From positions 297,715 to 327,272 of the forward strand of contig WELB01000160.1 in assembly GCA_009602725.1 (NCBI GenBank): 29,558 nucleotides of DNA. The letters run 5' to 3'. Below the pieces are notes generated by a model. It was not told where the DNA came from. It searched no databases and was given only the letters and a program-made list of their open reading frames with translations. Origin of the DNA: Spirogloea muscicola. Its lineage: Eukaryota > Streptophyta > Zygnematophyceae > Spirogloeales > Spirogloeaceae. The translations under genes and the position numbers were made by a program. This document shows positions 1 through 29,558 of this stretch, piece after piece; position 1 is the stretch's first letter; each line of letters opens with the position of its first letter.

Positions 1-2530
1 GGCGGCGGCGGCTGCAGAGGCCGAGGCGAAGGGCTCGCCGCCAGCTGCGGCGGCGGCGGCGGCAGCGGCGCCGCGGCGGTGGAAGAAGCGCAAGGTGGCG
101 CTGTTCGTGGCGTACTGCGGCGCGGGGTACCAGGGCATGCAGCGCAACCCGGGCGCGCGCACCACTGAGGGAGAGCTCGAGGCCGCGCTGCACGCCGCTG
201 GCGGCATCTCCGCCGCCAACTTTGGCGACCCCAGGTTCGACTCCCGCCGCCAGCAGCGCCCCCTTTTCTAGCCCCCAAATCTTATTGCCAAACCTTGACT
301 CGTAATCCCTGATCCCGAAAGTTGCCTAACCCAAGACCATCGTTGCTGGCCCTGGACCAGTGAAAGCCCACAAATTGGTTTGTGTCAACCTGAAGACAAT
401 GTGCTGGTTTCCAGTGGCCTCGGCTCAACGCACTTGGTGCAGCCGCTACTAGCGCCCCTCGACTGCGTCGCTCGAAAGGGGTACTCGGTTGCTGCCAAGG
501 GCTGACGGGCTGTGTAGCAGTTGCCCCTGCCGCTTGCACACTGACCGCAGGAGCTCGATGAAGGCAGAGTGCCAAATTTTGCCCCCAGCCTCGCAGTCAG
601 ATCGCCCCGCAAGCGTCTCAAGTGGCTCAGATGGCCATGAAAACATCACAGAGTCATATATCCTCAAACACTGCTGTGGGGCTGATGGTGGCCATGGCGG
701 TCTCACGTGCCACGTTGGCTTGCATGTGCCAGGAAGGTGGACTGGATGCGCGCTGCCCGCACAGACAAGGGCGTCAGTGCTGTCGGTCAGGTGCAGAACT
801 GAAGACCAGAATACCCCTGGACCCTGAGCCTAAGCCTTGAGCTGAGCTTCAAGGCTTGAATTCCGAGTTCCTTTTGTTCATATGTGGCATCAATTGTCAT
901 TGCCACTTCATATATACGCTTGTAGCATGTACTGCCCACAACATCAATCTCTCTGCGTCTCATAGCACAGTCTAGTAGCAACTTTGTGGCACCGATCAGA
1001 ACAGTTGACCTCTGAAATGGCTATACTTCAGCGGTGGCAGTCAGTCAGCCTGACGGGCGGTGTGGCCGCCAGGCCAGGTGGTGTCGGCACGGGTGGTGGT
1101 CGACCCGCCGGGGTTTGTGGAGCGCGTGAACGGCGCGCTGCCGCCGGCAGTGCGGCTGCTCGGGTATACGCGTGTGACCAACACGTTCAATGCCAAGGCG
1201 TTTTGCGATCGCCGGCGGTACGAGTACGTGCTGCCGGCGTTCGCGTTCGACCCGGACTCCTGCCGTGACAAGGCGTACATCTTTCGCTCACTCCTCACCG
1301 ACGAGGAGCTGGCCGCCGCGCGGGGGGACGACGCCGCGGCAGCCGCCGCCCGGCAGGTCAACACAGAGACGGTCCGTGGCGACGGCGAGGGTGGGGCTGA
1401 GCTGACGGACGTGGTTGAAGCCCCGGCGGCTTTGGCGCCGGGGGACGACAGCGACGGCAAGGCACCCTTCGTGTTCACGGACGACATCCGGCGGCGCCTG
1501 GCCTCCGTGCTGCGCAAGTACTGCGGCACGCACAACTTCCACAACTTCACCGCCCGGACGAGCGCCGCCGACCCAGCTGCCAACCGTTTCATCGTCTCGT
1601 TCGAGGTCGGGGGCGTGTTCTCGCTGCAGGGCACTGAGTATGTGCGCGTTGTCGTCGTTGGGCAGAGCTTCATGCTGCACCAGATTCGCAAGATGGTGGG
1701 CCTCGCCGTGGCCATCATGCGCGGCTGCTGCCCACCCTCCCTCATCGACCGCGCCTTTTGCAGGTCTGGCCCCCTCTCCTATCCCCCTCTTCTTCCCCCC
1801 CCTCTCTCTCTCTCCCCTGTCCTCCATCTCCTTGACCCTCCTTCCCATCTCCACCCCTTCTCTCACTCCCGCTCTCCTTCCCTCTTTGTCCTCCTCTGCT
1901 CTTCACCACACCATTCCCTGACCTCTCTTCTCCTTCTCTTGAGCAATGCCCTAGCATGCCATCTCAGCACCTTCGGCGCCCTGCAGGGACGAGAACGTGA
2001 ACGTGCCGATGGCGCCAGAGCTGGGCTTGTTCCTCGACGAATGCCTCTTTCACAGCTACAACCGCCGCTTTGGGCTAAGTCACGCGGCACTGACCATGGC
2101 GCCTTTTGCGCCCGTTGTGGAGGCCTTCAAGCGCGACCACGTGTATGCGCACATTGCAGCAACTGAGAAGAGCGAGGGCACCGTCGCCGCGTGGCTCCGC
2201 TCACTCAACGAGCGCAACTACCCCGACTTCACCGCCGCCCGCCTGGCTGCTGCTGCCACCAGCGCCCCTCCGCCAGCTACGGCGGCTGTCATGGCTGATC
2301 ACCCCTTGGTGGCGGGGATCGCCCCTGTTGGCATCTCTGGGGTGCTCACAAACGGATGCACTCAGTCCTCGGACGGGAGCCCAGCATCGTGCAAGGACCA
2401 GGCAACACCGTCAACTGACCATGCGTCCGAGGCCCCGCCGCTGGCTGCGGCAACGGCTGATGCCGAAGTGGTGCCAGTGCCAGAGGTGGTTCCGGAGCAC
2501 AGTCCCTTGCAGACAATGGAAGCTGGATAG
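1..2530 (+). CDS. PUS1: tRNA pseudouridine synthase, Pus1/TruA family (5' partial)
   Basis: Converts uridines in tRNA (and probably other RNAs) to pseudouridine. Exons by GT-AG junctions and reading frame: 2-234, 733-790, 1078-1763, 1987-2530; 506 residues visible, start codon off the left edge. An Ala-rich leader precedes the first conserved block (KRKVALFVAYCGAGYQGMQRN). The catalytic block RTDKGVSAVGQ in exon 2 holds the nucleophilic Asp of the family. Later Pus1 blocks are CDRRRYEYVLPAFAF, GTHNFHNFT, GQSFMLHQIRKMVGL and the C-terminal SYNRRFG and HVYAHI segments. Between YVLPAFAF and GTHNFHNFT there is an acidic, Ala-rich insertion, and after NYPDF a low-complexity tail of about 100 residues that human PUS1 lacks. 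The first donor (GTTCGA) is weak, but phase and family alignment support it. Introns 235-732 and 791-1077 show no other gene; intron 1764-1986 is strongly C/T-rich. Family assignment is secure; which Pus1-like paralogue it is, and whether it is nuclear or organellar, is not decided. Confidence 0.93.
1770..1935 (+). repeat. C/T-rich low-complexity tract inside an intron
   Basis: The last Pus1 intron is almost wholly pyrimidine on the coding strand, with runs of C and CT dinucleotides (densest near 1775-1830), and ends at the CTGCAG acceptor at 1981-1986. It is an extended polypyrimidine tract or a decayed CT microsatellite. No gene is seen in it. Confidence 0.7.
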
Positions 2531-8508: not shown

Positions 8509-11500
8509 TTAATGCAATCGTGTAAGTTCCTCCACTTGCTTGCAAAGCTCCTCGACTGGAGTTTCCATCATCGCCGCAATCTCCTCCATGCGGCTCCGCT
8601 TCAGGTCAAGGAAAGACTCAATTAAGTCCCCGTCCAGAAAACCCTTGGCGTCCGACGTCTTGCGCTCATTGCTGCAATGCAGGCCAAAGCCGGAGCATGA
8701 GCACGTCAGCGGGACAGCTTCAAATGACGTGGTATTCCACTCAGGCATCTGCAAGTAGCAATGAACTCAGAGACAACCACTTCTGAAGTACTGCCCAATC
8801 ACGTCCTGCTATTGTTACCATGCAGCATAGCAAGGCCCTGCCGTGTACTAAACTACCCCCTCTTACTCCAACCCGCAGAGCTCACTATTCCCCTTCCCCC
8901 ATTCCCCCTGCCGCAGCTAGTGAAAATAACAATTCTCTTGATCTTGAACAGGGTCCTCTTGATCTCATTTAAAGAACTGGGAGGTCCTTCCAAATCTATT
9001 GAGGAAAGAAATTGCAAGAGGGAAGGGGGACATAGGTGACCAGGAGACACTTTGTCGCGAGAGGTTTCTAGCAGTAAGATGTGTCCTGTACTGCACCTGA
9101 ATGAGCGCCATTGCTCGTGGCTCAGCCCACCGACGCCCTTCACAACCTTGGTGAGGTGGTGTTGCAACCGCAGCAAGAATGCAAATTGATCGTGTGGCAA
9201 GGATGCGATGACGCCAATGACGCCGTTGACCGTGCCAAAGATTGTGGTCGGTATTTGAGGCGACTCAGAATCAGCCAAGCGCATCACTAAGGAGCCCGAC
9301 CTGAAACAATTGACAAACTCCCCCAGATGGTACTCGCCAACCACTTCCAAGCGGCTCCTCTCTTCGTCAGTGGCCGCATCGCTGCAGAATCAAGTAGCAA
9401 CACGTAAGGCACTAGGCAGCCAGAGCCAGCATCAGTATGAGCTGCAATCGAATGTAAGGTCCTCAAGAAGTCGTGCCGCTGAATACTGTCAGGCTGTTGT
9501 AAGTTGGTCATCTATTTGGTACAACTTCTGGCAGGTGGATAGAGCACAATTCCTGCTTGGTTGGCACAGGTGTTAGGCTGCAATGCAGCAATTCCAGTTC
9601 GTCCTCATACTCTGATGTGATAAATAAACACCCCACAAAGGGTAGCAGTTGCAAACATTACCTATTCTTTCGCACTGTAAAGAGATTAAAATTGTTCTCA
9701 GCACCAAGATAAGTATCATCGTCAAGGATATGTACACTCGTCATCCAATCCGGATTGTAGTCCCGTGCTATTTCCTCAATTGCACCTTCCTCAGGCTGCA
9801 GGCGTCAAGCATGCTGTCTTACAAAAGCATCAAGAGAAGCACAACAAATGCAGGGCAATAGGTATTGATAGCTCTGACAATGTGGTCATCTGCAACCCAA
9901 AATGTTGAGCACTCCTAAAACAGATTGATGCAATTACGCACCTTGTAGATAAGAAGCGAAATGCTCTTCATCAAGTCGCCAACTACAATGAAGTCGCCTC
10001 GTGATTGCACGTATAGGGCCAGGATGTGCCCGTGATGGCCACACTCGCTCTGAAGTTCCCGTGAGCTGTCATCCCTTTGTGACCACTTATACAGCTGAAT
10101 CTTCTGATTGATCCCAGCAAGAAGCTTCCCATTGAAAGCATTCAGATTGTACACTGCTCCTTTTGTCTCCTTCTCTGTGACCAACTGCAGCTTCTGATCC
10201 TCCACTGTGAATACCAGAATTCTTCCCTGGATGAGAGAGTCGTGAAGGTGAAAGAATATCATGGGAGTACAGTGTAATAGACAATTTCATGCAAGAGTTG
10301 AGCTTGTAGTGTATGACTAACTTGGTGCCCATAATGCTTGTCAGCTTAAGAATAAGGCCTCAAGGCTGCGGAGGACATGCACCGAACCTCAGAGACATGG
10401 CTTATGTAAGGCTCAGCACATGATGCACAAGCATCCAATCATCTTGTCATTGGAAAAATGAAATCAGTATCACCTTGGAGGGCTCGTTCTCCTCTGGCAG
10501 GGCGTATGCTGTCCCCACGACAAAGTAAGGGTTTGGATCATCTGCGAATGTACATGAAAGGATGGAACACCCATTTTCATAGGCATCTAAATGGAAAGAC
10601 GAGAGTATCTCAAATGTCTGATCATGAATGAGGCGCACAAAGAAGTGCTCTATATCCTCGCCATTTGACTGTATTGTCTTGAGGCTGCAAATAGCAAAAG
10701 TTCTGGATTGCTCCTGTTCCATTATCAGAACCACTTGATTAGTCAGACTCCTATAACAAGCGACTGTACACTTGGTTGCACATCGAATCAAATGCAGTTG
10801 CAAGGACCTTCTCAAAGTAGTAATAAGAGCTACTTGCTCTCTCTAGATCTTTGGGGCAAACGTCACTGATCCTTAGCTCCTCTTTCGAAGGCAGCTGCCT
10901 GTTATTTGAATTGCTCTCTATTGCTGCTTAATGTTGTTGCGAGCATGACCCAAGTCCAGCAATGAGGAGCCCAACCAGAGGCAATAGCGAGATGCCAAAC
11001 CTGATGAGCTATCCTGCGGGCATGCTCGCCTAGTGGTACAGTCCTGATGTGTAACTTTTGAATGTCATCTATGGTGCCTATGGTCAACTCGCCCTCCTTG
11101 CCTATTGCAAGACTGGCTCAGCAAGGCAGACAACAATGTCTCAGTACTTGTGACATGCTTGAGGTCAAGGCAAGCAGGTTTGTCATAAGCAAGATCGTCA
11201 ATGTAGAATAACAGACAGTGTGAGAAAGATGAAGTGAAGCGCACCTGTCTGGGAATGAAGCTGAGTTGAACGGGCACATGTGTTTAACCTCCTTAAGGTT
11301 CACATTGGAATACAGCAGCTTCCGATTGCTGCTGTATATTACGGTCGGCCGGTCGCTAGCTGCAAACACATGCGTAGCATTCTTGGACCGGAAAGTCCTC
11401 AGTGTGATTGGCTGTGTGCCAAGCGAAATCTTCTTCCGATCGGAGAGCCTTGCTTTATAGTCAATTGATCTCTCCACCACAAAGTTGAAGAGATGTCCAT

Positions 11501-14500
11501 CTCCAAGTGCACAGAGCAGATAAGGTACCTGGCACCACAACAGCCGCCTGCACAATAAAATAGAGGTGCTAGAGGTCTCGACTAAGACTAAAAGCTTTTG
11601 CATGAGATCTTTGACAGGGAATGAATCAGGTATAAAAAATGCTCAATCTTGACTCTGATCAATGTGATCTCATGATAATGGGCTCAGATGAAACTGCGTA
11701 CCCCCTCAAAGGAGCAAAAGAGGACGGATCTGGGAATGATTTCACCCCCCAGGCTCTCCTTTGCCACAAGCTCCAAGCTGGGCAAGGAGAACATCCTGAC
11801 ACTCACGTCTGTCCACATCCCCACCGCGGCCAACTGGCTGCTCTCAGCTCCTTCCTCTAGAGGATTCAAGTCTAGGCATGAGACCTCAAACTCAAGCTGC
11901 ACGTGCTTGACCTCCACCAGCTTGCCTTGAGCTATTTCTAGATAGACCAAGTTCCCTCCACCAGTGGCCAACAAGACCTGCCCCACCACAGGTGTTGTCA
12001 AGGGGAGGACATGATGACAATCTGCAGCAAACTATGGTTTACCTAACAGCAAGCTAGACATCAATAAGCCACAAGCAAGCATTCTCATTGCCTACTTTGC
12101 CTGAATCCGCTGTTCAGATTCCCAGACAACAATATCCAGCCGTTAAATTGTTGTTTATCTGCTTTTCATTACTCCCGAAGCTAATTGGCCTTGTTGTAAG
12201 ACAGACACGCAAAGGCACATGCAAATGAAAGTAAGGTCCAGATTAGGATAGGGTCCGCTTCCAGTCAAGAAAGTTGCATATATGTTAATGCAAAAGTCAT
12301 GCGGGCACCTGTGAAGCATTGGCAGTGGCTACGTTGATTGTGATGCCGGAAGGGGCTTTCCACTCTGCTATAGCTTTGAGTGTGGCAGCATCCACAAGCC
12401 GCAGGCACCCAGCAGTGACCTGCCAAGAGACATAATCAACAAACAGGCAGCATTCTCACAACCTGCGTGGCTCATCTGCTGAAGCTGGTGTGCATACTGT
12501 TGGGCCCTAGACAGCACGGAAGCTTTGGGGCCAGCAACAAGGATATGCAGCTCACATAAGGGCAAGACACATGCTAAGGCTGCAGTAGATGGACAATAAC
12601 ATACTCAAGAAAATAAAACCAGAAGGTGACATCTTTGAAACTAGACTGAATTATATAGTCAGACCTCAGACAACACCCCAGTTGCCATATCGTGCCAAGA
12701 GCAGAGGCCTTACCTGGACAAGTTGATCGTGAACAGCATTGCCACAGAAGAGCGTCTGTGCCTCTGAATCAAAACCCTCCACCTCAGTCTCGTCTAATTC
12801 GTCATCAGCATTAATTGCCAATATTCGAGTCTCGCTTATGAAGGTGACCACCAAGTACGTGTCATAGGCATCCATGGATGACGCACGTAAGGACCACATG
12901 CCTTTTATTCCTGGTAACTCAACGGCTGCCTGTGATGATGCACGCCATAACAATCACAACAAAGCCAACAGATCTACCAGACCTTTGAGAAGAAGTGCAG
13001 TCTCCATCATCATAAGCTTGCTAGCTTAGGGTAGTATATCAAGCTGCTACACGCATATATTGAGCCCATGAGAATTCAAAGCTGTGACTCTAAAAGGCAT
13101 CAGTTGGAATGGTTGATCAGCCAGATTATCCACTTTCAGGATGAGGAACAGAGAGCCCCTTCATTCCAGTGTAAAGCCTTCAATGTAAAAGCATGCCTAC
13201 ATCTAAGGTCTTTAAGAGGGCCCAGCACCTGCTCATTGATACCAATACCATTTCGAATGATGCGCAGAGACCCATCCTTGAATGCCCCGGAGCACGTGAC
13301 GACTTGACCTTGACCCTGGCGCTCCAGGTCAACAACACAGAAGTCCACAATGGGGCCCAGGTTGACAAAATTCTCCAGGATCTCTACATAGGACCCTTTG
13401 GTATCTGGCTGCAGGTTGAGCTTGACAAGCTGCACAATCACGGCATAAGGTAAATCTGCTCAGCAGCAAGGCCACCAAAGTTCGAAGGTGAGAGTAATGC
13501 CTACAATATAAAAGCAGAAGACTTGAAACTGTGCTCCAATTTGAGATATGGCCACAAGAACCTCACAACCAGCTAGATAAGTGTAGCACGTTGCCTTTGC
13601 CTATGCTTAGCAGAAGCCTTACAGACCCACATTAGCTGCCTCTCGAAAACCATGCTTGCGAGTATAGTGTGTACCTGAGAATCCCCATAGCTTGAGCCTA
13701 TGTACACCACACCATTGTCCAGGTATGACAGCGTTGAACCAGCCGATGTCTCACCAAGTAGCTCCAGCTTCAACCCAAGCACCCTGCAGCAATACTCAAT
13801 GCTTAAAGCTGAACAACGCAACATCACAGCCGCCTGCCGACATCCATGTCCAGAACTGCTTGTACTAATGGTGTTGCTACTATGTGGGACCTTTAAGAAC
13901 ATTGATTGACTTGCGAGAGGAATACTGACAGAACCACCATACCTCTCCTTATCGTGATTGATGACCAGCAGGTTGAGCTGACCATTGCTATCACTCAAAA
14001 GGTAACGGGACCCGTCCGGATCAACTTGTCCATACGCATTAGTAACAAACTGGAGAATTTACAGAACTCTTTGAAGTCATTGACAAAGCGGAGCAGAAAA
14101 CGTTGCTATCTTGTAAGATACATAAGCACGAGCGCATGAATCTTACTACCAATTATGATAATTGTCAAGCAGTGCTGATGTCCCATTCCCATAGCCAGCA
14201 ATTGCTCAAGCAACTTACACCTCAAGCTAAGGACAAAGACATACATATCCATCCGCATAGTCCGTGCACAGTGGTTGACATGGCAACATCAAGCATAGCA
14301 TAAACTTTGCTAAGCAACTTTGATGCATGTGGAGCCACTTGGCGAAGATGGAACCTACAAAACGTATTGGGATGACTTTAAAGACAAGTCCATTGTGGTA
14401 CATGATTGTCTGCTCGCCAATGATGATGGCCCCACCCAACGGTAGCGGGACTGGTATAATGAAGCCCGCTCCTCCGTCAACATTTGACTGCATCCAGGGC

Positions 14501-18958: not shown

Positions 18959-21900
18959 CTACTCGCTCTCTGGCGTCGTGGTGGGCTTGTAGGGTGTCGG
19001 GGACGTGGGCGGTCGAAGGTCAGGGTACATGGTATAAGGGCTGAGTGGCCTGTTGGCATATGGCAGATCTGTTGACGACTTTGACGACGAGGCCAAGGTG
19101 CTATTTGTACTTGAGGACCCAGCCTCCCAGGGCCAGCGGAAGCCAGCCTTCACAGCCTGCGCAAACAATATCCGTGTGTTAGTGAAATTGTTATGACGCT
19201 GGGGTGGACCCCTCCATTAGATTCTTTGATTGCCTCACATGCCTTGCACCATGGGATTCCAAACGTCGCACCGTGCTTGTGACTGCACCCAGCGATGTGG
19301 CTACCCATGGCCGCAAGCCTGCTCCGACCTCCTTGAGAGGAGCTGGCACAGCTTCTGAAACCTTTGCTGCCAGTTGAGTGGGCTTCGCCTTGGCTTCTTC
19401 TATAGCCTGCACCGCCTTGTTGGCTTCAACAGCTGGCTCCAACTTGGGGACCTCGGCAGTGGATGGAGGTGGAGCCACCTCCTCCTTGACCGCGTCCGAT
19501 ACATCCTTCAAGAGTTCAACAACAGATTATAGAAACATTGTCACTCGAATCCCGTCGAACAGTAACTGCTCTGTGATGTACTTGCTCCTTGTGAATGAAC
19601 AGTTGAGCCAAATACTCTAATAACTATCAGCATTCCATACCTCTTTCAGGGCAGGAGGCTCTGCAGGGGCATTGACGTCCTCAGCCTGGAAATCCTTTTG
19701 CCAGGGCCAACGTAACTGCTGGACAACCTGCGCCGCGGCCCCCTTAAGGGGGGCCACAATGTCCTGTGCGAGAGGGGTGCTGGTGGATGAGCCCTCTGCC
19801 ATTTGCGGGGGGCCAGGGAACACCGGCGGCTTGAGGTCTTCGTATCTGTCCAAACGCTCACCAGAGGAGATTTATGGTCAAGTTTATCGTAAGGCTCTGA
19901 TGAGAGTATGTGCTCACAAAACACCATAAGAACCATAATTTTCCAAGAACTAGGAACTAAAGCAGCAATTGCCATTTGTAGTCACAACTGTCTGAGATCC
20001 TCTCAGGAACGAAGTAGCCATTTTCTTTCAGTTACAACCACAATAACAACGGCAAAATTCGACATATGCCACTGCAGAGCAGACAATGCCTGCATCTTGA
20101 GCAATGCAATAACTTGAGTCTGGTATTTGATATTGATCTGTCACCTGGTAAATGGAGACTGCGGTGTGGCATTCTGTGGCAGTGGCGCTTCTTCCACCTT
20201 GTCCTCAACCGCCGACTTGACCTCGCCAGCAGCTCCTTCGACCTTCTCGACCGTCTCTTGGAAAGCAGACTCAACCTTCTCCGGTGCATCTTGGACAGCA
20301 GACTCAACGTTTGCCGCAACCTCTTTCATGGTCTCAGCAGCCTCGCTCACGCCACTGTACATGAGGCAAGCTTCATTTTCAGTATGCTGGCACTTGAGGG
20401 CGACAGAAACAGCAAGTGATCACAACAACCTTGAAAGCAGCAATATGCTGCTCTACCGGCAACAGAAAGTACAAACACTGCTACTTTCATATCTAATGAC
20501 TGATTGGCAATAGAAGTTACTTGCTAACCTTGCAGGTGTTGCAGGACCATTCAGCTGCCAGGGCCAGCGGAAACCACCTAAAGCATCCAGCGGCTTCTGC
20601 GGGGCTGCCTCCTGAACCTTGCCCAGCACGTTATCGGCAACATCCCCAGCATCCTCCGAGGCCTCTTTGGATGCTTCCTTCACTGACTCATTGATTGGGT
20701 AGTCTGCAGCTTGGCCTGGTGGTGTACCCGACAGAGCCTGAGCAGCTGCCTCTGGCTCTTCAGCTGCCTCCGTGGCTTGAGATGTTACCTCCGACATCCT
20801 ACAGAAAACGAGTGATTCATGAGGAGTATGAAGGATATGATCTGGCAACTAGGCACGTGAAAATATTCACTGCTATTACTACGACTCAGCTACTGGCAAT
20901 CCAGATTAATACTGGTTGCTCCTCCATGACACTGCATGTAACTTTATTTAACTGCAGCCTCACTCACTTATCGCCAATGCTCTTCTGGGCCTCCTCAATG
21001 TTGATGTTGTCCTTCACCACCGATTCAACTTGGCTAGCAAGCCCCTCACTTTTCTCCGCTGTGGAATCGATGGCATCTTCAATCTTTGCCGGCACCTCTT
21101 GTGCAGCCTCAGTAGCCTCATCCACAGCACTGCAGGTGAACACAAGCTTGTTGTCAATCCAGTCCACAATTAAGCAGGAGAGAGACACCAAATGATGCTG
21201 AAACTATGCATGCATCAAGATTATTTTCTGGTCATGCCAATATCTCCTTACTACGAATTTTCGTCTAAACATCGCACACGATTTTCTGACCTTGCAGCTT
21301 CTGTAGCAGTATCACGCTGCCAGGGCCAGCGGAAGCCGCCAAACGGCTGTGGCAGCTTCTGCGGAGCAGCCTCAGCAGCTTCCTGGACATTAGCCGTAAA
21401 GTCTTCAACAATGCCGCGTGCACCCGCAGATGCAGCCTCAACCTTCTCAGAGGTATCCTGCACAGCATCTGATGCCTTATCTGCAGAGTCGTCCACTAAG
21501 TCCTTTGCCTGGGCTGGTGCCTCTCCCAGCACATCTTTGGAAGACATATCCCTCTCCTCGGCAGCTTCAGTGGCCTTAGAGGTCTCCCCCTCAATGGTTT
21601 CCACCGCCTGAGAGCTTAACTCAGATGCCCTACAAACATCCCAGCAAAGCATGTCAACGTCCCATGTCACGAGCAAGCAAAACATCTCAGGTTACCTGTT
21701 ACCTTCAATGCATGTGAGCTTAACTTGTAAGGAGTATCTCCTTTTTGTGGGCAAGCTCACGAGCCTGCGGACTCAGCTCACTTGTTGCTGATACCCTTGA
21801 TCGCGTCCTCAGCCTTCTGCCATGGCCACTCGAAGCCTTGCTGAGGCAGTGCCTCGGCGGCATCCCCAACCTTCTGCTTGACCGACTCCATAGCCTCCTG

Positions 21901-24900
21901 TGCCTGTCCTGGCACATTTTCTGCTTGCGGAAGCACTTCTTCCTTGATGAAATCTTGCGCCTGCTCCACTGTGGCCTGGGCTTGACCAGCAGTCACAGGA
22001 GAACTGCAGCCAAATAGAAAGCAAAGTGGACTTTGGGGTTTAGGGTTTAGGGTGCCATTTCGATCGAGAGAGTGTGATAAGGACATTGGCTAGTACTCTT
22101 CCGCATATCAAATAATGCTCAACATTAGAGCATATCTCAACCTTTGATGGGGTGCATTGTCAGCCTGGTGCTCGTGTTTCTTAATCGAGGCAAGACTCTG
22201 AGACTCACATATTGCGTGCTGCTGCCTGTGCCTGCTCCTGGGCATCCTGAGCAATCTGCCAAGGCCAGCGGAACCCCTGCTCCTGCACCTCGCCAGCCAC
22301 CTTGCCCACGCTGTCCTGCACCTGCTCAGCCGTGTCGCCTGCTTCTTCGCTTGCTTGCTTGCTCTCGAGTGGTATATCCTCGCCCTTCTGGGTCCCGTCC
22401 TCCACTGCAGGAGCCTCCTCGGGAGCACTGTATTGACCAGGTGGGAAGTAAGAAGAGCATCCTAAAGCTTTGCATGACAAGAAGTGGATGCAACCACCAA
22501 AATCTTCTATAGCACTGCAAGTAAGGCAAGGTCCACAAGACAGGAGATGAGCGCCAGATTAATTTACGGTCTTCTGCTTCACCAGAGTACATCTGAGGTG
22601 CTATGACATTCTTGCAAAGTGTGGTACATGTGCTTTTACAACGACTCTAGCTGACTGATCTGCAGTCTCGGAACAGAATATACAAACATTGTGGCAGCTG
22701 CTTCCTGTGCTTCCCTTTGCGCATCCTGCGCAATCTGCCACGGCCAGCGGAAGCCCTGCTCCTGCACGCTCTCAGCCACCTCGCCAGCCTTATCCTTTAC
22801 CTGCTCAACCACAGACTCGGCCTTGCCAACTGCAGCCTCTGCAGCAGGCTGCACCTCCTCCACAGCCTCCTCTGCTTGTCCAGCCCCATCTTGCACCTTG
22901 ATTGCATCCTCAGGTCGTATCCTGCAGGTAAAGCATTAATTTATCATTCACTTGCATCAGCTTCCCTGAATACTTACCCCAGATACCTGTAGTCAAGGCT
23001 GGTCATAAAACATTGGCGCAACTACTGATCTTTGGAGCGCATCTAGTCATGGGCAGTGCATAGGTATGACACGTGCTACGTACTTGTCCTTGACGGCACC
23101 ATCTGCCGCCTGGATTGCATCGTCCGCAATCTGCCAGGGCCAGCGGAAACCTTGCTCCTGCACATTGTCAGCCACCTCGCCAGCCTTGTCTTGCACCTCC
23201 TCGACAACAGACTTGGCCTTGCCAACTGCAGCCTCTGCGGCAGGCTGAGCCTCCTCCACAGCTTCCTCTATCTTTCCAGCCCCGTCCTCCATCTTGGCCT
23301 CAGCCTCAGGCGCGCTGTGCAGGTAAGCCATCAAGAAAAAGTCACCTGCAGTCTCCTAAATAAACTCCCAGTACAGCTAAGGTTGGCAATAGTAATGTAG
23401 CACCAAGTATGTTAGTAAGCAAGCACAAAAGACTTACTTGCTACTTTGCAGAGAGCATCTATGGTTATGGCAATGCATAGGTGTAGTGAGGTGCTACGAA
23501 CATGTCCTTGGCCGCTTGCTTCGAGTCTTCCACAATCTGCCAGGGCCAGCGGAACTCGGAGTCCTGGACCTTCTCAGCAGCGCCGCTGACCGATTCCTGG
23601 ACCTGCCCAGCGGCCATCTCCACCTTGTCTGTTGCCTGTTCCGCCAGCGGTGTGTTGTCCTCGACAAGCTCCTCTGCCTTTTCAGTCACAGTGCTAGCTT
23701 GAGCAGAAGCCTCAGAAAAACTGCACCAGGATGACAACAAGCGAGAGTGTGAATTTGGGCAGACTGAATCAGGCAGCTGATAGCTCACGCAAGAAGGCGC
23801 AAATGTACAAACGTTGAGGTGCTACAAATGGAAGAGGCATCTCACGCATCGGCCGTTGCCTCCTCGGCCTTCTGCGGCAGTGTCTGTTGCCACGGCCAGC
23901 GGAAGCCTGTGTTCTGGACCTCCTCCGCTGTCTCCTGAACTTGCTGGGAAGCTGCACCAAGGACGTCAGTGACGGGCTCTGCTACCTCCTCAGCTGTTGA
24001 TTGCACTGTTGACAGAGCAGGCGTTGCGAGCTCCTTCGCAGATTCCACAGCATCCTTGGCCTTGTCTGTGACATCAGCGCTGCACACCAGAGAAGGGCCA
24101 CAACCTTACACATCCAAAGATGTACAAGTGAGAGCCGTCTACCTAAGAAGCTATAAGACAAGTCTTATCAAACCGAGATTTACGAAGGGAAGATACCCCA
24201 TACTAGAAATTCAAGCGGACCCAAACGACCAATCGTCAAATAGAACGTCTATAAGTATGCACCCCCTCGCACTTTAGACAGGAATATCTGAGTGCAAGCA
24301 ATCAAAATGCCATTGCCTGAGAAGCTCATTGGCTGCTGGCAATTCCCAATATCTACATAATATGACCAGAAAAGAAATGGTAGCACACGAGGGCCTGGTC
24401 TCCTGTACCTTGGGGTGTCCTCCACTTGCCACGGCCAGCGGAAGCCACTAACAGCACTCTGCGCCTTCTTTGGAGCCTCCTGCATGCCATCCACAACCTG
24501 CCCTGCTGCTGACCCAGCTTGCTCCTTGGCCTGCTGCATGCGTTGCATCCAGCAAGGTAATATGTCAGCAAAAATCTAGAAAACGACTTCTGCTTATCTC
24601 TGCAGGCAGTGGGACACATGGGACTTTCAATTTGCTGTACAAGCGTCAAGTGCAATCTGTTTAGTACATCTCTGAAGTAAATACATGTATGTATTCAGTA
24701 TGCTGCTCTGGAAGCACAGGAATCGCTGTGGGGGTCTTGCATGCAGCCTTCGCCTCACACCGTCACAATGAGCGCCAGGGTTTGCTCAACGCATTGCTGC
24801 AAGCTTGCTGTTCAGCACAAATTGTACCTGGGCAGCGGCCTCTCCCCTCTTGCGCTCTTCCTCAGCCTTGGCCTCCGCCTCCTCGATCGCCTTCCTGTCC

Positions 24901-27900
24901 TCCTCCTCCTTGGCCTTGGCCTCTGCCTCTGCCGCCTTCCTCTGCCTCTCCTCTTCGTCCTGCACAGCCTTTGCCTTGGCTGCACCTTCCTCCTTTAGCT
25001 GCACAAGGAGACGTACGATAATTATCTTCAGACAAGACAACACCAGAGTTCATCATATGATGGTCCTCGAGACTCTTCACACACGTAGTTATTCTGCTCC
25101 CTGTTTATGACACCATTGGATGTCATCTCGGCAGCTGTACTTGGAGAGGCTGAGGGGCTTATGGCGAACCTGCTGCACCTTGGCCTTGGCAGCTTCCTGC
25201 TGGTCGGCTATCTTCTTCTTGGCAGCCTCAGCGGCGCTGGCCAGTGCGCCGGCAACAGACTGCCCGGCCCTCTTGGCATCCTCAGCCGGCTTCTCCACTG
25301 CCTGCTCCGCAACCTTGGAGACCTCCGTGACCCTCTGCCACGGCCACCCGCCACCCAGCTGCCCGCTTGAGGCCTTCTGCGCAGACCCAATCTGCTGTGG
25401 TGGGGAGCCCAGATCGACCGACGCGGACGCCTCCGAGCGAACCCTGGCAAGAATGTCCTGCTTCTCCCGCGCGCTCAGGCTGCCAGACGCAGAAGACATG
25501 CACATCTCTTATCTGACTGCATACATGAAATGGTCGCAGCCCTTTCTTTTCTGCTGTTAAGAGGTGCAAGAAGTAACAATCTGAATATGTGCCATATCCT
25601 TTCAGTGGATCATGTGCAAGCAATTTGGGTTATTGGGTTATTCTGCTCACATCTTGCCCTCCCTGGCGGATGCCAAGGCCGCCACCTCGAGCGCCTTGGC
25701 CTCCTTGGCTGCCCGGGAGGCAGCTCCGGCCTTGGCCTTGATCTCGCTTGCGCGCCTCTCAAGGGCGGCCTTCTCTGCAGTCTGCTCCTCAGCCAGCCGC
25801 TTGGCCTCCGCCTCGTCCTCCTTGGCCTCTTGCAGCTGCTTGCTGAGCTTTGCCTGCAGATGGGCACACATTGACAATGAAGTGTTAGCTGCTGGCTGTA
25901 TCACGAAGTGAGTACAAACTGCAAAGTTGACCACTTTAAATGGCAACGTTAAGTACGATCACAGATGTTGTAATGCTCTGTCAAGGACCCTTACTACTGC
26001 TGCTGAGGGCTCTACTATCAAATAACTGACAAATGCTTCTAATACCCAAGTGCTCTCTCTTGATTGTGCCCCTGCCTCACCTGCAGAGCACGGGCCTTCT
26101 CTGCCTCCAGCTTCTTCTGCTCTGCCTCTCGCTCAGCAGCAGCCTGCCTTTCAGCTGCCTCCCGTTCCTGCTGAGCCTTGGCCCTCGTTTCTTCCTGCCG
26201 CTTTAACTCCATCTCCTTGTCCTGCCCAGACAGGTAAAACCTCAAATACGATCATCGATAACAGACTGCTATGAAGCAGTGTAACAGACGCACGCTGTAA
26301 CTGGTACAATCAAAGAAAGAGCAGGCATGTGATCATACTCAGAGCACAGGAAGCCAAAGTGTCTCAAGTACAGGTATTGATATGATAGTGGAGATTAACA
26401 TCATGATGGTACAACAAGAACAGACCCACATCATGATTGTCACTTACCTCCTGCTGCCGCTTGCTGCCTGCCACCTTCCTGCTGGCAGTTGCCGGCCTAC
26501 CATTGTCATCTCGCTGCAGCTGCGCTGCCGCTGCATTATCCCCCTCCTGAAGCTGGCCTTCAGATGGGGCCTCAGCAAGGAGCTCCTCAATCGGCCGCAG
26601 GGGAGCATCCTCTTCAGCCACGGCCTCGAGGGTCTTGTACTGAGACAAGTCCGGGTTGCTGATGATGGCAGCAATCAGCTCCGCAACCTGAGGAGACGAG
26701 CAAACAGCAAGTCCACTGTTAGCATCAGCACAATATAACAGTTCTGTGTTGAAAGCCAGTTGCTAGTCAATGTGCTGTGTCAAACCAGCAGCTTCTCGAA
26801 AGTAAAACGATATTCACATGAACATTATCAAAAGAGTCAAGTATATATTGTTGGTCTGCAGTGGGCACCATCTGCACAGCAATTTCAGGTATTCACAGCA
26901 TCAAATGGCAAGAATGCAAAAGAGTGCTCACCTGCAGGTTGGAGACTTGGCCCCCAAACTCGGTGTCCGGTGGGGCCAGGCGGAGATTGTGCGTATCCTT
27001 GTAGTCATCCTTGGGCCTCTCCATTCCCCCAGGCCGCACAATCTGCAGCGCAGGTCACAAGTTAGAACAACCTTGAATTATGTCCACAACCTATAGTTGG
27101 CTGATTCAGCTGCACCTGTGAGTCTCTGGACTACTGCTTACAGTGTAAGGCATGCCGCTTTCACGGAGCGCCTTCTCTGCCTGGGCTTTCCACACGAGCA
27201 CGCCCCAAAAGAGGCTGCAGCACATGGAGAGCATGCAAGCAAGTCTGAGCAGCGGTCATAGAATAGCTGGTAAGCAAGCCCACAACTCTTGCCCACAAGC
27301 TGCAAATGCAGCAACTATCCAGCAGCTACTGCAATGTATGCCAGTACCATTCTCTTGCAATTTGAATTGGAAACCACCTGCATGTTTGTGTATCAAGGCT
27401 ACCAGTTGCACTTAGGGACGTGTTACGTACTTCAGAAGGCCTGCCGGGAAGCCAGGCTTGCCAGTTCCCAGGGACGTGACAAGCACAAAGTGATTGACTT
27501 TCATATCCACAGCTGCAATTTGTGCCGTGCAGCAAGGACATTTGATGTAAGACATTGAAGGACTCAAAGCACAGCCCGTCAGACTGAACAGTTTATTAGT
27601 GGAGCTGCACGCAGGAACATGACTTCCAACATGGGTAGGTTACAAACAGGCTCAAATTGCAATACAACTGTGAAGCTGGTCATAGGTGCAGACACAAGGA
27701 CAGCAGCCGTGCCAACGCTGGACCTTACCTGCAGCAGTGAGGTCCTTGTTGGCCTTCCCATCAACCTTGTAAGGGCCTGTCACATCCAGCAGTGAGCTCT
27801 CTGACGCGCCCAGGGCGCTCACCACCGTACCAGCGTTCCCAATGGCGGCCTCCACGGACTCCGAGTCCTGGAGATCGACCTCCACAACCTCCACCTGCTT

Positions 27901-29558
27901 CTGCCTCCGGACGAGCCCCTTCGAGGAGACCAGGGTGGCAGCAAGGGCCTCAGTAGGGCGGCTCACAGGCCAATCAGGCAATCCATCAAAGCATGCTGTT
28001 GTTTACTTTGGTGGTGGACACGAGCTGACATTCCCATCTAATACATCTGTCCTGACTGGCCGATGCAGCTCAATCCAGCCGTCTCTTGTGCAGAATCAAA
28101 AGTAGGACTACGAGGCTGGGGACTGCAGGCGGCAGGCTGACCCCGAGGCTAGCCCAGAAGCCTCCAGGCTTGGCGGCAACTTCCAAGACCTGCAATGACC
28201 CAGGAAAAAAACAGCATCTTAGGCTGTCTTGTGATTGCTTAGCCGAGTTTCTGCCACTTCAAGGAATATGAGCTTCCACAACGAGAGCATAGTCTGTCCA
28301 AATTGCTTCCAGAGTGCAGCAAGCCATCAATGAACACTTGTGAGGGTGTTTGGTCCAACATTTCAAAGCTCACATCTGCCAGGATCTCCTTGGCCTTCTC
28401 TATGTTGCGAGCGCCGGCCCTGACACGGAAGCCAGCCTTCACCAGCTCCCTGTAGCACCAGAACATGGCAGCAATTGGACAAGAGGGTGGTGGCCCGTAG
28501 AGGCCAAAGGGACTAGCTTCTGGAGCATTCACCTTGCTCCAGCGGGACCTTGCTTCCAGCACGATAAATTGATGCAATGTATGTATCGCAAAAGCGCAGA
28601 AGCTTTTAAAGGAATGGCTTGGTAGAAGCAGGGACATTAAGTGTTGACAGATATGTTGATCATCTGAATTGTGTGGTGATGAATGCAAGACCAAGACTGC
28701 AAGTGGTTGTCATTGGGACTACCAGTGGTGACGAGCTCACCTCACAGTGCGGGAGCCCACTTTGCCAGTGGCGCCGGCAACGAAGACGACCTTGTTGTCG
28801 CGGGGGAGGTCCTTCGCAGGCCGACCCGAGCGTGCCACTGCGGTGCCGCCCTCGGGCCTCACGAGCTTGGTGGTGCCGCCGGCCTGCCGCTTGGATGCCG
28901 CGGCGCCGAGAGCGGCGCCAATGCCGCCCTTCTGCGTCCCCGCGGCACCCTTCGCTTTTGCAGGGCGCCCCGCCACCTTCTGCGTGCCACGCTCCCGCTC
29001 CGCCGGCTTCGGGAGCTTGCCGCCGATCGTCCTCCCTCCAGTGGCCGCGCGCTCGGTGTCGGCGGCCTTCTTCCCCAAGTTGAGAAAGCCAAACGGCCGC
29101 GAGGCTGCTCTTACAAAGTCACGCAGCCGAACGCAGCGTGCACGTCAAGCCATGAGCTCGCAGGACAGCACCCATGCCTGCGCTGGCCTCTGGGAAGGTG
29201 AGTCTCCAGCAATGGAGGGCTCAGATGATGGGGCCAAGGGCTCTCGCTCGACCTCCGTCGTCTATTACACTGGCATTGATGACCTTCAGCCTAGTGGTGT
29301 CACCACTAAAGTCTATACCCCTCTGTGTACCTGAGTAAGGGCTTCAGCTCACACACATTCCAGACTGCTAGATGACACAACTTGGGCCAACGAGCAGGCT
29401 GCAAGTAGTGGCTGCTTGACGAGGGACGTCATTACCTTCCTCCGCGACCTCCTGCTGCGGCGTCCTGGCGGCGCGCGGGGCCAGGCGGAGGCGGCGGCGG
29501 CGGTTGTGCGCAGGGGCCGCCCCCGGGGAGAGCTGCAGGCGGCGGTAGCCGCCGAGGG
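18959..29558 (-). CDS. TIC62: Giant Tic62-like protein: Rossmann domain plus WPW-repeat array and FNR motifs (5' partial)
   Basis: Land-plant Tic62 is a chloroplast protein that binds NADP(H) and recruits ferredoxin-NADP reductase (FNR) to membranes. Exons, minus strand: 29558-29436 (partial), 29104-28741, 28449-28374, 28189-28142, 27948-27729, 27512-27431, 27214-27142, 27042-26932, 26687-26448, 26221-26081, 25853-25651, 25479-25170, 24998-24828, 24533-24409, 24079-23846, 23720-23502, 23314-23084, 22921-22688, 22427-22209, 22003-21782, 21629-21291, 21129-20968, 20798-20529, 20354-20145, 19845-19641, 19505-19239, 19156-18959. All joins keep frame; about 1,764 residues visible. Order: transit-like leader, basic Gly/Lys/Ala linker, Rossmann domain (residues about 140-440), charged coiled coil, then WPW modules to a C-terminal FNR motif. 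Least certain are the 29104 acceptor, the 28142 donor and 27948 acceptor, and the donors at 25169, 23501 and 22687. Tic62 in land plants has about 500-650 residues, so the middle is a large expansion. One gene is favoured because phases match throughout and both ends are Tic62-like. Confidence 0.85.
18992..19051 (-). other. C-terminal FNR-recruitment motif of Tic62
   Basis: The last exon encodes RPLSPYTMYPDLRPPTSPTP, an almost exact match to the Ser/Pro-rich repeat by which land-plant Tic62 (and the C-terminus of TROL) binds FNR. It lies 11 residues before the stop, after a Ser/Thr-rich spacer following the last WPW motif. Confidence 0.9.
19824..20158 (-). other. FNR-recruitment-type motif split by an intron
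   Basis: Joining the end of exon 20354-20145 (SPFT plus two bases of Arg) to the start of exon 19845-19641 gives SPFTRYEDLKPP, followed by VFPGPP. Plant Tic62 repeats read close to SPYxxYEDLKPPTSP. The intron interrupts the Arg codon. Function by homology; the tail after KPP is diverged. Confidence 0.7.
22039..22052 (+). repeat. Two TTTAGGG units inside an intron
   Basis: Two tandem copies of the plant-type telomere heptamer, flanked by a partial third unit (gggg), lie in the intron 22208-22004 of the Tic62-like gene. A single unit is also present at 7960-7966. Too short to be a telomere remnant with any certainty. Confidence 0.5.
24828..26221 (-). other. Charged coiled-coil segment of the Tic62-like protein
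   Basis: Exons 26221-26081, 25853-25651 and 24998-24828 encode Glu/Lys/Ala/Arg/Gln-rich helix without Pro or Gly breaks (for example QEREAAERQAAAEREAEQKK), typical of a long coiled coil or single alpha helix. Exon 25479-25170 sits between them and carries a Ser/Gly-rich piece with the first motif copy, GGGWPWQ, before returning to Ala/Lys helix. It replaces the start of the Pro/Ser-rich tail of plant Tic62. Confidence 0.75.
26448..28810 (-). other. Tic62-type NAD(P)-binding Rossmann domain (domain within the Tic62-like gene)
   Basis: Atypical short-chain dehydrogenase fold. In order: VVFVAGATGKVGSRTV (dinucleotide loop, GxxGxxG type), AGFRVRAGARN, VEVVEVDLQD, GASESSLLDVTGPYKVD, VNHFVLVTSLGTGKPGFPA, LFWGVLVWKAQAEKAL, YTIVRPGGMERP, FGGQVSNLQVAELIA and a closing APLRPIEELLAE. 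These track pea and Arabidopsis Tic62 closely. No YxxxK catalytic pair is seen, as is usual for this group, so a binding or redox-sensing role is more likely than classic dehydrogenase activity. Confidence 0.92.
28812..29104 (-). other. Basic low-complexity linker before the Rossmann domain
   Basis: About 95 residues made mainly of Gly, Ala, Lys, Arg, Thr and Pro (for example GGRTIGGKLPKPAERERG), strongly positive. It follows a segment RPFGFLNLGKK and precedes DNKVVFVAGATG. The composition suggests a disordered cationic linker. Ordinary Tic62 has a shorter connection here. Confidence 0.6.

What the first reader, a model, noticed from the sequence alone, without database searches (positions are those of the whole stretch)
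19124..25355. Undescribed short motif GFRWPWQ repeated 12 times
Seen: the core WPW is kept in all 12 copies while flanking residues vary (GFR, EFR, GFE, QLR, GGG). One more copy, GLRPW, has decayed. Sequences between motifs drift much more, so the motif itself is under constraint. I recall no family with it. Inference: sticker-and-spacer design, with an aromatic plug of two Trp and an Arg that either inserts at the membrane interface or docks into a repeated pocket on a partner. The spacing of about 50-110 residues recalls multivalent plastid scaffolds such as EPYC1-type Rubisco linkers, but the motif is not the known Rubisco-binding one.
Basis: partly seen in the sequence, partly recalled or inferred. 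Interest (0 to 1): 0.88.

Follow-up and report, generated by a model that had tools for sequence, protein, structure and literature searches.

The report
Repeated WPW motif in algal Tic62
The twelve WPW motifs sit in the tail of Tic62, the chloroplast protein that tethers the enzyme making NADPH, and mark a conserved second motif, probably a docking site, that ferns, mosses, liverworts and algal relatives of land plants share and that the flowering plants examined lack.

Summary
In detail: 12 WPW copies, minus strand, at the stated coordinates. They lie in one 27-exon gene for a Tic62 protein: NAD(P)-binding head (54% identical to plant Tic62), coiled coil, and a tail ending in the FNR-docking sequence of the Tic62 peptide solved with FNR (PDB 3MHP, E 3.6e-5). 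Two further intact gene copies in the genome keep all 12 WPW cores; dN/dS is 0.036 in the 7-residue motif, 0.35 in the spacers. The motif is not private to this alga: 18 of 177 proteins retrieved carry [FL]xW[PFS]W (ferns, lycophytes, liverworts, mosses, Closterium, unlabelled records), 17 of them with FNR repeats too; 156 others (flowering plants where labelled) keep the FNR repeat without it. The founding survey called the FNR module vascular-plant-only; this alga and Closterium have it. Exon duplication enlarged the alga's array. Best reading: a second docking motif of the FNR tether, for an unknown partner other than FNR. The EPYC1 comparison and the 'decayed' GLRPW are not supported. New variant of a known kind.

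The parts
18959..29556 (-). Tic62 gene, 27 exons, 1763 codons plus stop; 5' end runs off the contig end, start codon not seen
   Evidence: two intact paralogues with the same exon structure
26448..29104 (-). exons 2-9, holding the NAD(P)-binding (SDR) head
   Evidence: Pfam NAD_binding_10 E 4.9e-35; 54% identity to plant Tic62
24828..26221 (-). exons 10-13, Lys/Glu/Ala coiled-coil-like part, holding the first WPW
   Evidence: composition; the matching region is helical in the model of relative P0008
25335..25355 (-). WPW copy 1, GGGWPWQ
24426..24446 (-). WPW copy 2, GFRWPWQ
23887..23907 (-). WPW copy 3, GFRWPWQ
23537..23557 (-). WPW copy 4, EFRWPWQ (GFRWPWQ in both paralogues)
23131..23151 (-). 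WPW copy 5, GFRWPWQ
22735..22755 (-). WPW copy 6, GFRWPWQ
22256..22276 (-). WPW copy 7, GFRWPWQ
21817..21837 (-). WPW copy 8, GFEWPWQ
21317..21337 (-). WPW copy 9, GFRWPWQ
20555..20575 (-). WPW copy 10, GFRWPWQ
19698..19718 (-). WPW copy 11, QLRWPWQ
19124..19144 (-). WPW copy 12, GFRWPWE
20145..24079 (-). exons 15-24, all of length divisible by 3 and starting in phase 2; exons 17, 18 and 19 are tandem duplicates
   Evidence: phases; DNA identity 83% (17/18, 194 bases), 81% (17/19, 86 bases), 81% (18/19, 115 bases)
18983..19051 (-). canonical FNR-docking sequence RPLSPYTMYPDLRPPTSPTPYKP
   Evidence: PDB 3MHP chain C TIC62_peptide, E 3.6e-5; coordinates
19806..20158 (-). second, degenerate FNR-docking sequence SPFTRYEDLKPPVFPGPP, split by the intron 20144-19846
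   Evidence: a counterpart is in all three gene copies
19305..19319 (-). GLRPW, conserved in all three copies

Best explanation
The gene is the Tic62 of a streptophyte alga, probably a zygnematophyte. Shown: an NAD(P)-binding head, a coiled-coil-like part and a tail with two kinds of short motif, the FNR-docking repeat (1 canonical, 1 degenerate) and F-x-W-P-W-Q (12 copies); the WPW motif is under strong purifying selection and occurs in Tic62 of other non-seed streptophytes, usually interleaved with FNR repeats. Inferred from the plant protein: the tail holds ferredoxin-NADP reductase at the thylakoid and helps to set the balance between linear and cyclic electron flow. Inferred here: WPW is a second docking motif that binds something other than FNR, most likely a pocket on an abundant protein at the stromal thylakoid face, so that FNR sites are pinned next to that partner; the number of copies sets the avidity. 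In this alga exon duplication has enlarged the WPW part, now 12 copies. The unit is predicted, at low confidence, as helix, break at FRW, then a helix beginning at PWQ.
For: Identity: head 54% identical to Tic62, NAD_binding_10, tail matches the FNR-bound Tic62 peptide 3MHP; Closterium ends in a very similar tail, SDLPYANRPLSPYTMFPDLRPPSSP. Constraint: dN/dS 0.036 in motifs, 0.350 in spacers, 0.106 in FNR repeats, 0.146 in the head; 0 nonsynonymous and 8 synonymous pairwise differences in the 36 WPW-core codons; blocks test 0 of 20000. Distribution: 18 of 177 retrieved proteins carry [FL]xW[PFS]W, 55 copies. Over 42 copies in 14 of these: F or L at -2 in 42, P in 36, Q or E after the second W in 37 (both W were required by the search). 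84 of 94 Trp in the tails of these 14 lie in WxW. Independence from FNR: Ceratodon P0015 has 3 WxW and no FNR repeat, 156 of 156 others have the FNR repeat and no [FL]xWxW, the alga has 12 to 2. Interleaving: outside the window WPW to next FNR repeat has a median of 43.5 residues, FNR repeat to next WPW 83. Genome: of 28 exact matches to TTYCGNTGGCCNTGGSA 27 lie in the three Tic62 copies, nine in each; AGR and FKWPW versions give 0. Models.
Against: No binding data for WPW; partner unknown. Conserved tryptophans can also serve membranes or self-association. The three gene copies are close relatives (91-92% identical), so the selection test rests on few changes: with counts cut to one third, to allow for summing over pairs, Fisher p is 0.015 for the motif and 0.096 for the core. 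The genome pattern counts are not high in themselves: the same patterns read backwards gave 33, 2 and 6 matches; only their placement speaks. The order is not strictly alternating: P0007, P0009, P0017, P0121 have two WPW in a row, P0015 three, and P0002, P0005, P0007, P0008, P0009, P0017 two FNR repeats in a row. Models have mean pLDDT 55.6 and 57.5. FNR docking of this protein is inferred from sequence.
Confidence: 0.6

Rival explanations
1. WPW is a membrane-interface anchor: amphipathic helices lie on the thylakoid surface and F-R-W-P-W inserts among the lipid head groups, tying the tail and its FNR to the membrane.
For: Aromatic/Arg/Pro make-up, about -3 kcal/mol per FRWPWQ on the Wimley-White interface scale (values recalled; sum); the 28 residues before 9 of 12 motifs are amphipathic at z 2.3 or more against shuffles at 100 degrees; weak Apolipoprotein and ApoLp-III matches, E 2e-6 to 3e-6 but below the Pfam cut-offs; the only two papers in the library that hold the letters FKWPW are, by title, about antimicrobial peptides.
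Against: Net charge -104 over 880 residues against a membrane with anionic lipids (recalled); in a looser scan Phe in place of a motif Trp was seen once in 18 proteins; the usual Q/E after the second W (37 of 42) is not needed for lipid insertion. In 12 of 18 records a WPW lies within 4 residues of the C-terminus, with no room for a following helix.
Confidence: 0.22
2. WPW is a second FNR contact: it binds another face of FNR and works together with the PLSPY repeat, perhaps to clamp dimers.
For: Where a WPW is followed by an FNR repeat, the distance is 21-62 residues in 25 of 26 pairs outside the window (the other is 113; isoforms and same-species records counted apart).
Against: 12 WPW to 2 FNR repeats in this gene; Ceratodon keeps 3 WxW with no FNR repeat; 156 of 156 others keep FNR repeats without WPW.
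Confidence: 0.12
3. WPW is a self-association sticker that makes Tic62 a condensate-like scaffold.
For: Aromatic stickers in a Trp-poor tail (window: 25 Trp in the 1375-residue tail, 24 of them in WPW).
Against: Only 2-6 copies in the other 18 records; the W-P-W-Q spelling is more exact than a generic sticker needs.
Confidence: 0.06

Closest known systems
Tic62 of vascular plants (pea, Arabidopsis)
   Same: NAD(P)-binding head, then a tail with the repeat SPYxxYxD/ELKPPxSPSP that docks FNR (Balsera 2007, PMC1847441, abstract and passages; 3MHP)
   Different: Longer coiled-coil-like part, 12 WPW motifs, only one canonical FNR repeat; Balsera 2007 calls the FNR module vascular-plant-only and holds neither 'WPW' nor 'tryptophan'
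Tic62 of ferns, lycophytes, liverworts, Sphagnum, Closterium (sequence records, most unnamed)
   Same: Head, charged helical part, WPW and FNR motifs interleaved
   Different: 2-6 WPW copies instead of 12; in 12 of the 18 records a WPW is at the C-terminus
TROL
   Same: Carries the same FNR-docking domain (PMC6953530, abstract in the listing)
   Different: Rhodanese-like and integral membrane protein; no rhodanese match in any of the five pieces scanned here
EPYC1 and the Chlorella Rubisco linker
   Same: Repeated short aromatic motifs in a presumed plastid protein of a green alga
   Different: No EPYC1-type Rubisco-binding motif; the protein has an enzyme-like head and an FNR site

Membership tests
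Tic62 | Atypical SDR / NAD(P)-binding head of the Tic62 type | tested here: met
   54% identity to a plant Tic62, E 2.4e-141; NAD_binding_10 E 4.9e-35
Tic62 | FNR-docking repeat SPYxxYxD/ELKPP in the C-terminal tail | tested here: met
   3MHP TIC62_peptide, E 3.6e-5; one canonical and one degenerate copy
Tic62 | Chloroplast transit peptide | tested here: inconclusive
   Basic N-terminal stretch in exon 1, but the start lies beyond the contig end; N precede exon 1 in the C53 copy
Tic62 | Binds FNR, associates with thylakoids or inner envelope | not testable with these tools
   needs pull-down and fractionation
EPYC1-type Rubisco linker | Rubisco-binding motif [DN]W[RK]xx[LIVA] (recalled) | tested here: not met
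   no match in 1763 residues
EPYC1-type Rubisco linker | Binds and condenses Rubisco | not testable with these tools
   no evidence bears on it
TROL | Rhodanese-like domain | tested here: not met
   not among Pfam matches of five pieces that together cover nearly the whole 1763 residues; a domain cut by a piece boundary could be missed
Apolipoprotein-type repeats | Pfam match at the curated cut-off | tested here: not met
   27.5, 17.9 and 15.7 bits against a cut-off of 90 for Apolipoprotein, 28.3 against 36.3 for ApoLp-III

The most novel reading that the evidence does not exclude
The ancestral streptophyte Tic62 was a two-code scaffold: FNR-docking repeats interleaved with WPW repeats that dock a second photosynthetic partner (for example PSI, cytochrome b6f or a PGR5/PGRL1-type factor), so that the tail lined up FNR with that partner to steer cyclic electron flow; flowering plants dropped the second code, and this alga expanded it to 12 sites.
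Probability: 0.35. Interest if true: 0.85.

Novelty: new variant of a known kind. Interest (0 to 1): 0.64.

Why it matters
How FNR is held at the thylakoid, and how that shifts electrons between linear and cyclic flow, is an open question in photosynthesis. One paper calls Tic62 and TROL higher-plant-specific (PMC7984839, passages), and the survey of the family takes the Tic62 FNR module for a probable recent gain of vascular plants (PMC1847441, abstract and passages). The FNR-docking sequence in this alga and in Closterium would place the tether before land plants, and the conserved WPW motif points to a second binding partner that work on flowering plants could not have shown. Marchantia, with 4 WPW and 3 FNR sites in P0012, makes this testable.

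Tried and rejected
Rubisco linker: rejected as an identification, no EPYC1-type or KWSP motif; the Chlorella linker paper has no mention of WPW, tryptophan or Tic62 in its main text, and I saw only its abstract and three passages.

WPW as a named domain or shared by other proteins: no Pfam model at its cut-off over the WPW part in the five pieces scanned; no convincing PDB match for a motif composite (best E 1.6); the search seeded with the WPW/FNR tail of Diphasiastrum returned 77 proteins, the query included: 76 carry the NmrA / NAD(P)-binding annotation of Tic62, the other, P0121, is a Sphagnum-like Tic62 tail (lengths limited to 595-1893 residues, 7987 candidates scored). The one DNA match outside the three Tic62 copies (C13:941378) reads FRWPWH in an open stretch of 66 residues and was not examined further.

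Records without the motifs: Parachlorella P0176 and unlabelled P0177 have the head but neither motif. The Physcomitrium record P0075 has neither motif and looks like a fused gene model; Balsera 2007 reports only a short form in Physcomitrella.

Tree of heads: 4 of 22 inner branches starred; it joins the three gene copies but does not settle the place of the alga; several rows were not cut cleanly to the head.

Limits: only 120 of 373 hits were listed, so gymnosperms, hornworts, Klebsormidium and Chara were not seen by name; the 156 others include rows without a species label. The cross-species counts required both Trp, so they cannot show how often a Trp is lost; a looser scan of the 18 proteins found two off-type sites, FKFPW in P0003 and WRW in P0009. 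Some of the 18 are not independent: P0012 and P0013 (Marchantia), P0011 and P0014 (one transcript cluster), P0121 and P0150 (Sphagnum or like it), P0004 and P0006 (Calypogeia), P0003 and P0007 (Adiantum nelumboides). 'Not in print' rests on searches of an open-access library: FRWPW is in no paper there, FKWPW in two on antimicrobial peptides (listing); of the 233 papers only 40 were listed, and the 'wpwq' ones among them are unrelated by title.
Full report
What is there. The window is the end of contig C160 (297715-327272) of a 153 Mb eukaryotic assembly. Twelve WPW tripeptides lie on the minus strand in motifs between 25355 and 19124. Connecting the open stretches with GT/AG introns while keeping the frame gives one gene of 27 exons from 29556 down to 18959, 1763 residues and a stop, open at the 5' end because the contig ends there. 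The splice joins were chosen by frame and consensus, not by transcripts, but two other loci in the genome, C53 and C91, carry the same 27 exons with an intact frame. Their boundaries are GT and AG except at two acceptors (exon 18 of C53, exon 5 of C91), where the aligned edge or the site differs.

What the protein is. The head matches NAD_binding_10 (E 4.9e-35) and is 54% identical to plant Tic62. The tail ends in RPLSPYTMYPDLRPPTSPTPYKP, which matches the Tic62 peptide of PDB 3MHP (E 3.6e-5; that the entry is the complex with FNR is recalled). A second, degenerate copy, SPFTRYEDLKPPVFPGPP, is made by joining exons 24 and 25 and has a counterpart in both other gene copies. The C-terminus resembles the end of a Closterium Tic62 closely (P0018). 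With three gene copies 91-92% identical, and a genome triplication reported for the zygnematophyte Spirogloea muscicola (PMC7994812, passages), that species is the likely source; this is inference.

The motif is constrained. In the three copies all 36 WPW-core residues are identical. Summed over pairs, the 7-residue motifs have 6 nonsynonymous and 30 synonymous differences (dN/dS 0.036), the spacers 369 and 305 (0.350), the head 0.146, the coiled coil 0.186, the FNR repeats 0.106. Fisher p is 7.8e-6 on pair sums and 0.015 on one third of the counts; for the core alone 0.0019 and 0.096. Variable columns number 3 of 84 in motifs and 163 of 933 elsewhere in residues 721-1730, and 0 of 20000 random sets of twelve 7-codon blocks had 3 or fewer. 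The stretch around GLRPW is also unchanged (17 of 17 codons), which speaks against decay.

The motif is old. Of 177 proteins retrieved in three searches, 18 carry [FL]xW[PFS]W, in 55 copies: ferns (Adiantum, Ceratopteris), lycophytes (Selaginella, Diphasiastrum), liverworts (Marchantia, Riccia, Calypogeia), mosses (Ceratodon, Sphagnum), the alga Closterium, and unlabelled records. Of the 159 others, 156 (flowering plants where labelled) keep the FNR repeat and have no [FL]xWxW; three lack both motifs (Physcomitrium P0075, Parachlorella P0176, unlabelled P0177). Over 42 copies in 14 of the 18 proteins, position -2 is F (36) or L (6), -1 is R (19) or K (11) or another residue (12), the middle is P (36), F (5) or S (1), and the residue after the second W is Q (30), E (7) or another (5). 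Both W were required by the search; a looser scan found FKFPW once and WRW once. Of 94 Trp in the tails of the 14 proteins, 84 are in WxW.

The two motifs are interleaved, though not strictly. Diphasiastrum P0010 and Marchantia P0012 read W-F-W-F-W-F-W, where W is a WPW and F an FNR repeat. Outside the window the distance from WPW to the next FNR repeat is 21-113 residues (median 43.5, 26 pairs) and back 41-121 (median 83, 24 pairs). In Ceratodon three WxW stand without an FNR repeat, and in the window ten WPW precede the first FNR repeat. So the WPW motif can exist without FNR docking, and FNR docking without WPW.

Elsewhere in the genome. The exact pattern for FRWPW with CGN codons followed by CA or GA has 28 matches, 27 of them in the three Tic62 copies (nine each) and one reading FRWPWH elsewhere. 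AGR and FKWPW versions have none. The same patterns read backwards gave 33, 2 and 6 matches, so the numbers alone are not unusual; the placement is. Such patterns miss other codons and motifs split by introns.

How the array grew. Exons 15-24 have lengths divisible by three and phase 2 at their starts; exons 17, 18 and 19 are 81-83% alike in DNA over 86-194 bases, while the other matching pairs align over 18-82 bases, mostly around the motif. This is tandem exon duplication for exons 17-19 and a likely origin for the rest; it is older than the split of the three gene copies, because all have 12.

Shape. The 28 residues before 9 of 12 motifs are amphipathic (z 2.3 or more at 100 degrees), and residues 721-1600 carry a net charge of -104. 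A model of one repeat unit has helix 23-54, a break, and helix 59-75, with the best confidence (block means 64, 81 and 71) from residue 51 on; the motif is residues 55-61, so P-W-Q starts the second helix (mean pLDDT 55.6). A model of relative P0008 shows an alternating strand-helix head, a helical rod (367-743 with breaks) and a tail of low confidence in which its two WPW (752, 874) are not ordered (mean pLDDT 57.5). That gives no sign that WPW folds back on its own head.

Function. In plants FNR tethering by Tic62 and TROL is reported to be needed for transient cyclic flow on dark-to-light transition (PMC7984839, passages). A Chlamydomonas protein named TIC62 was found near VIPP1/2 and PGRL1 by proximity labelling (PMC10602608, passages), although other papers say that Tic62 and TROL, or orthologues of the plant tethers, are absent from Chlamydomonas (PMC11912148, PMC5683061, passages). 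I take WPW as a second docking motif with a partner at the thylakoid, because Trp is seldom exchanged, Q/E after it is mostly kept, and the motif comes and goes independently of the FNR repeat. Lipid insertion is the main rival.

Known or new. Balsera 2007 states that the FNR module is found only in vascular plants and was probably acquired there (abstract and passages). Here it is in two algae, in liverworts and in Sphagnum. That paper holds neither 'WPW' nor 'tryptophan'; FRWPW is in no paper of the library. A 2025 study mentions duplications of TIC62 without motifs in the one passage seen (PMC12531127). The library is open access only, so a description elsewhere cannot be excluded.

Noticed in passing
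window 8856-14058, minus strand: Stretches of a DDB1/RSE1/CPSF1-type beta-propeller protein (Beta-prop_RSE1 first and second, CPSF_A), likely DDB1; only four stretches were scanned.
   Followed up: partly
window 1054-2163, plus strand: tRNA pseudouridine synthase (PseudoU_synth_1, E 1.1e-9); its full extent was not worked out.
   Followed up: partly
L022-L026 (C91:505500-516967, C53:229000-248500): Two further intact copies of the Tic62 gene, 91-92% identical in protein; contigs C160 and C91 both end within exon 1 or just beyond it, and N precede exon 1 in C53, so the 5' end is not assembled in any copy.
   Followed up: yes
window 19275-19319: The stretch GLRPWVATSLGAVTS is kept in all three copies (17 codons around GLRPW without amino-acid change) and may be a functional element of its own.
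   Followed up: partly
P0015 (Ceratodon) and P0075 (Physcomitrium): These two moss records lack the FNR repeat; Ceratodon keeps three WxW motifs, whereas Sphagnum-type records (P0121, P0150) keep both kinds.
   Followed up: partly
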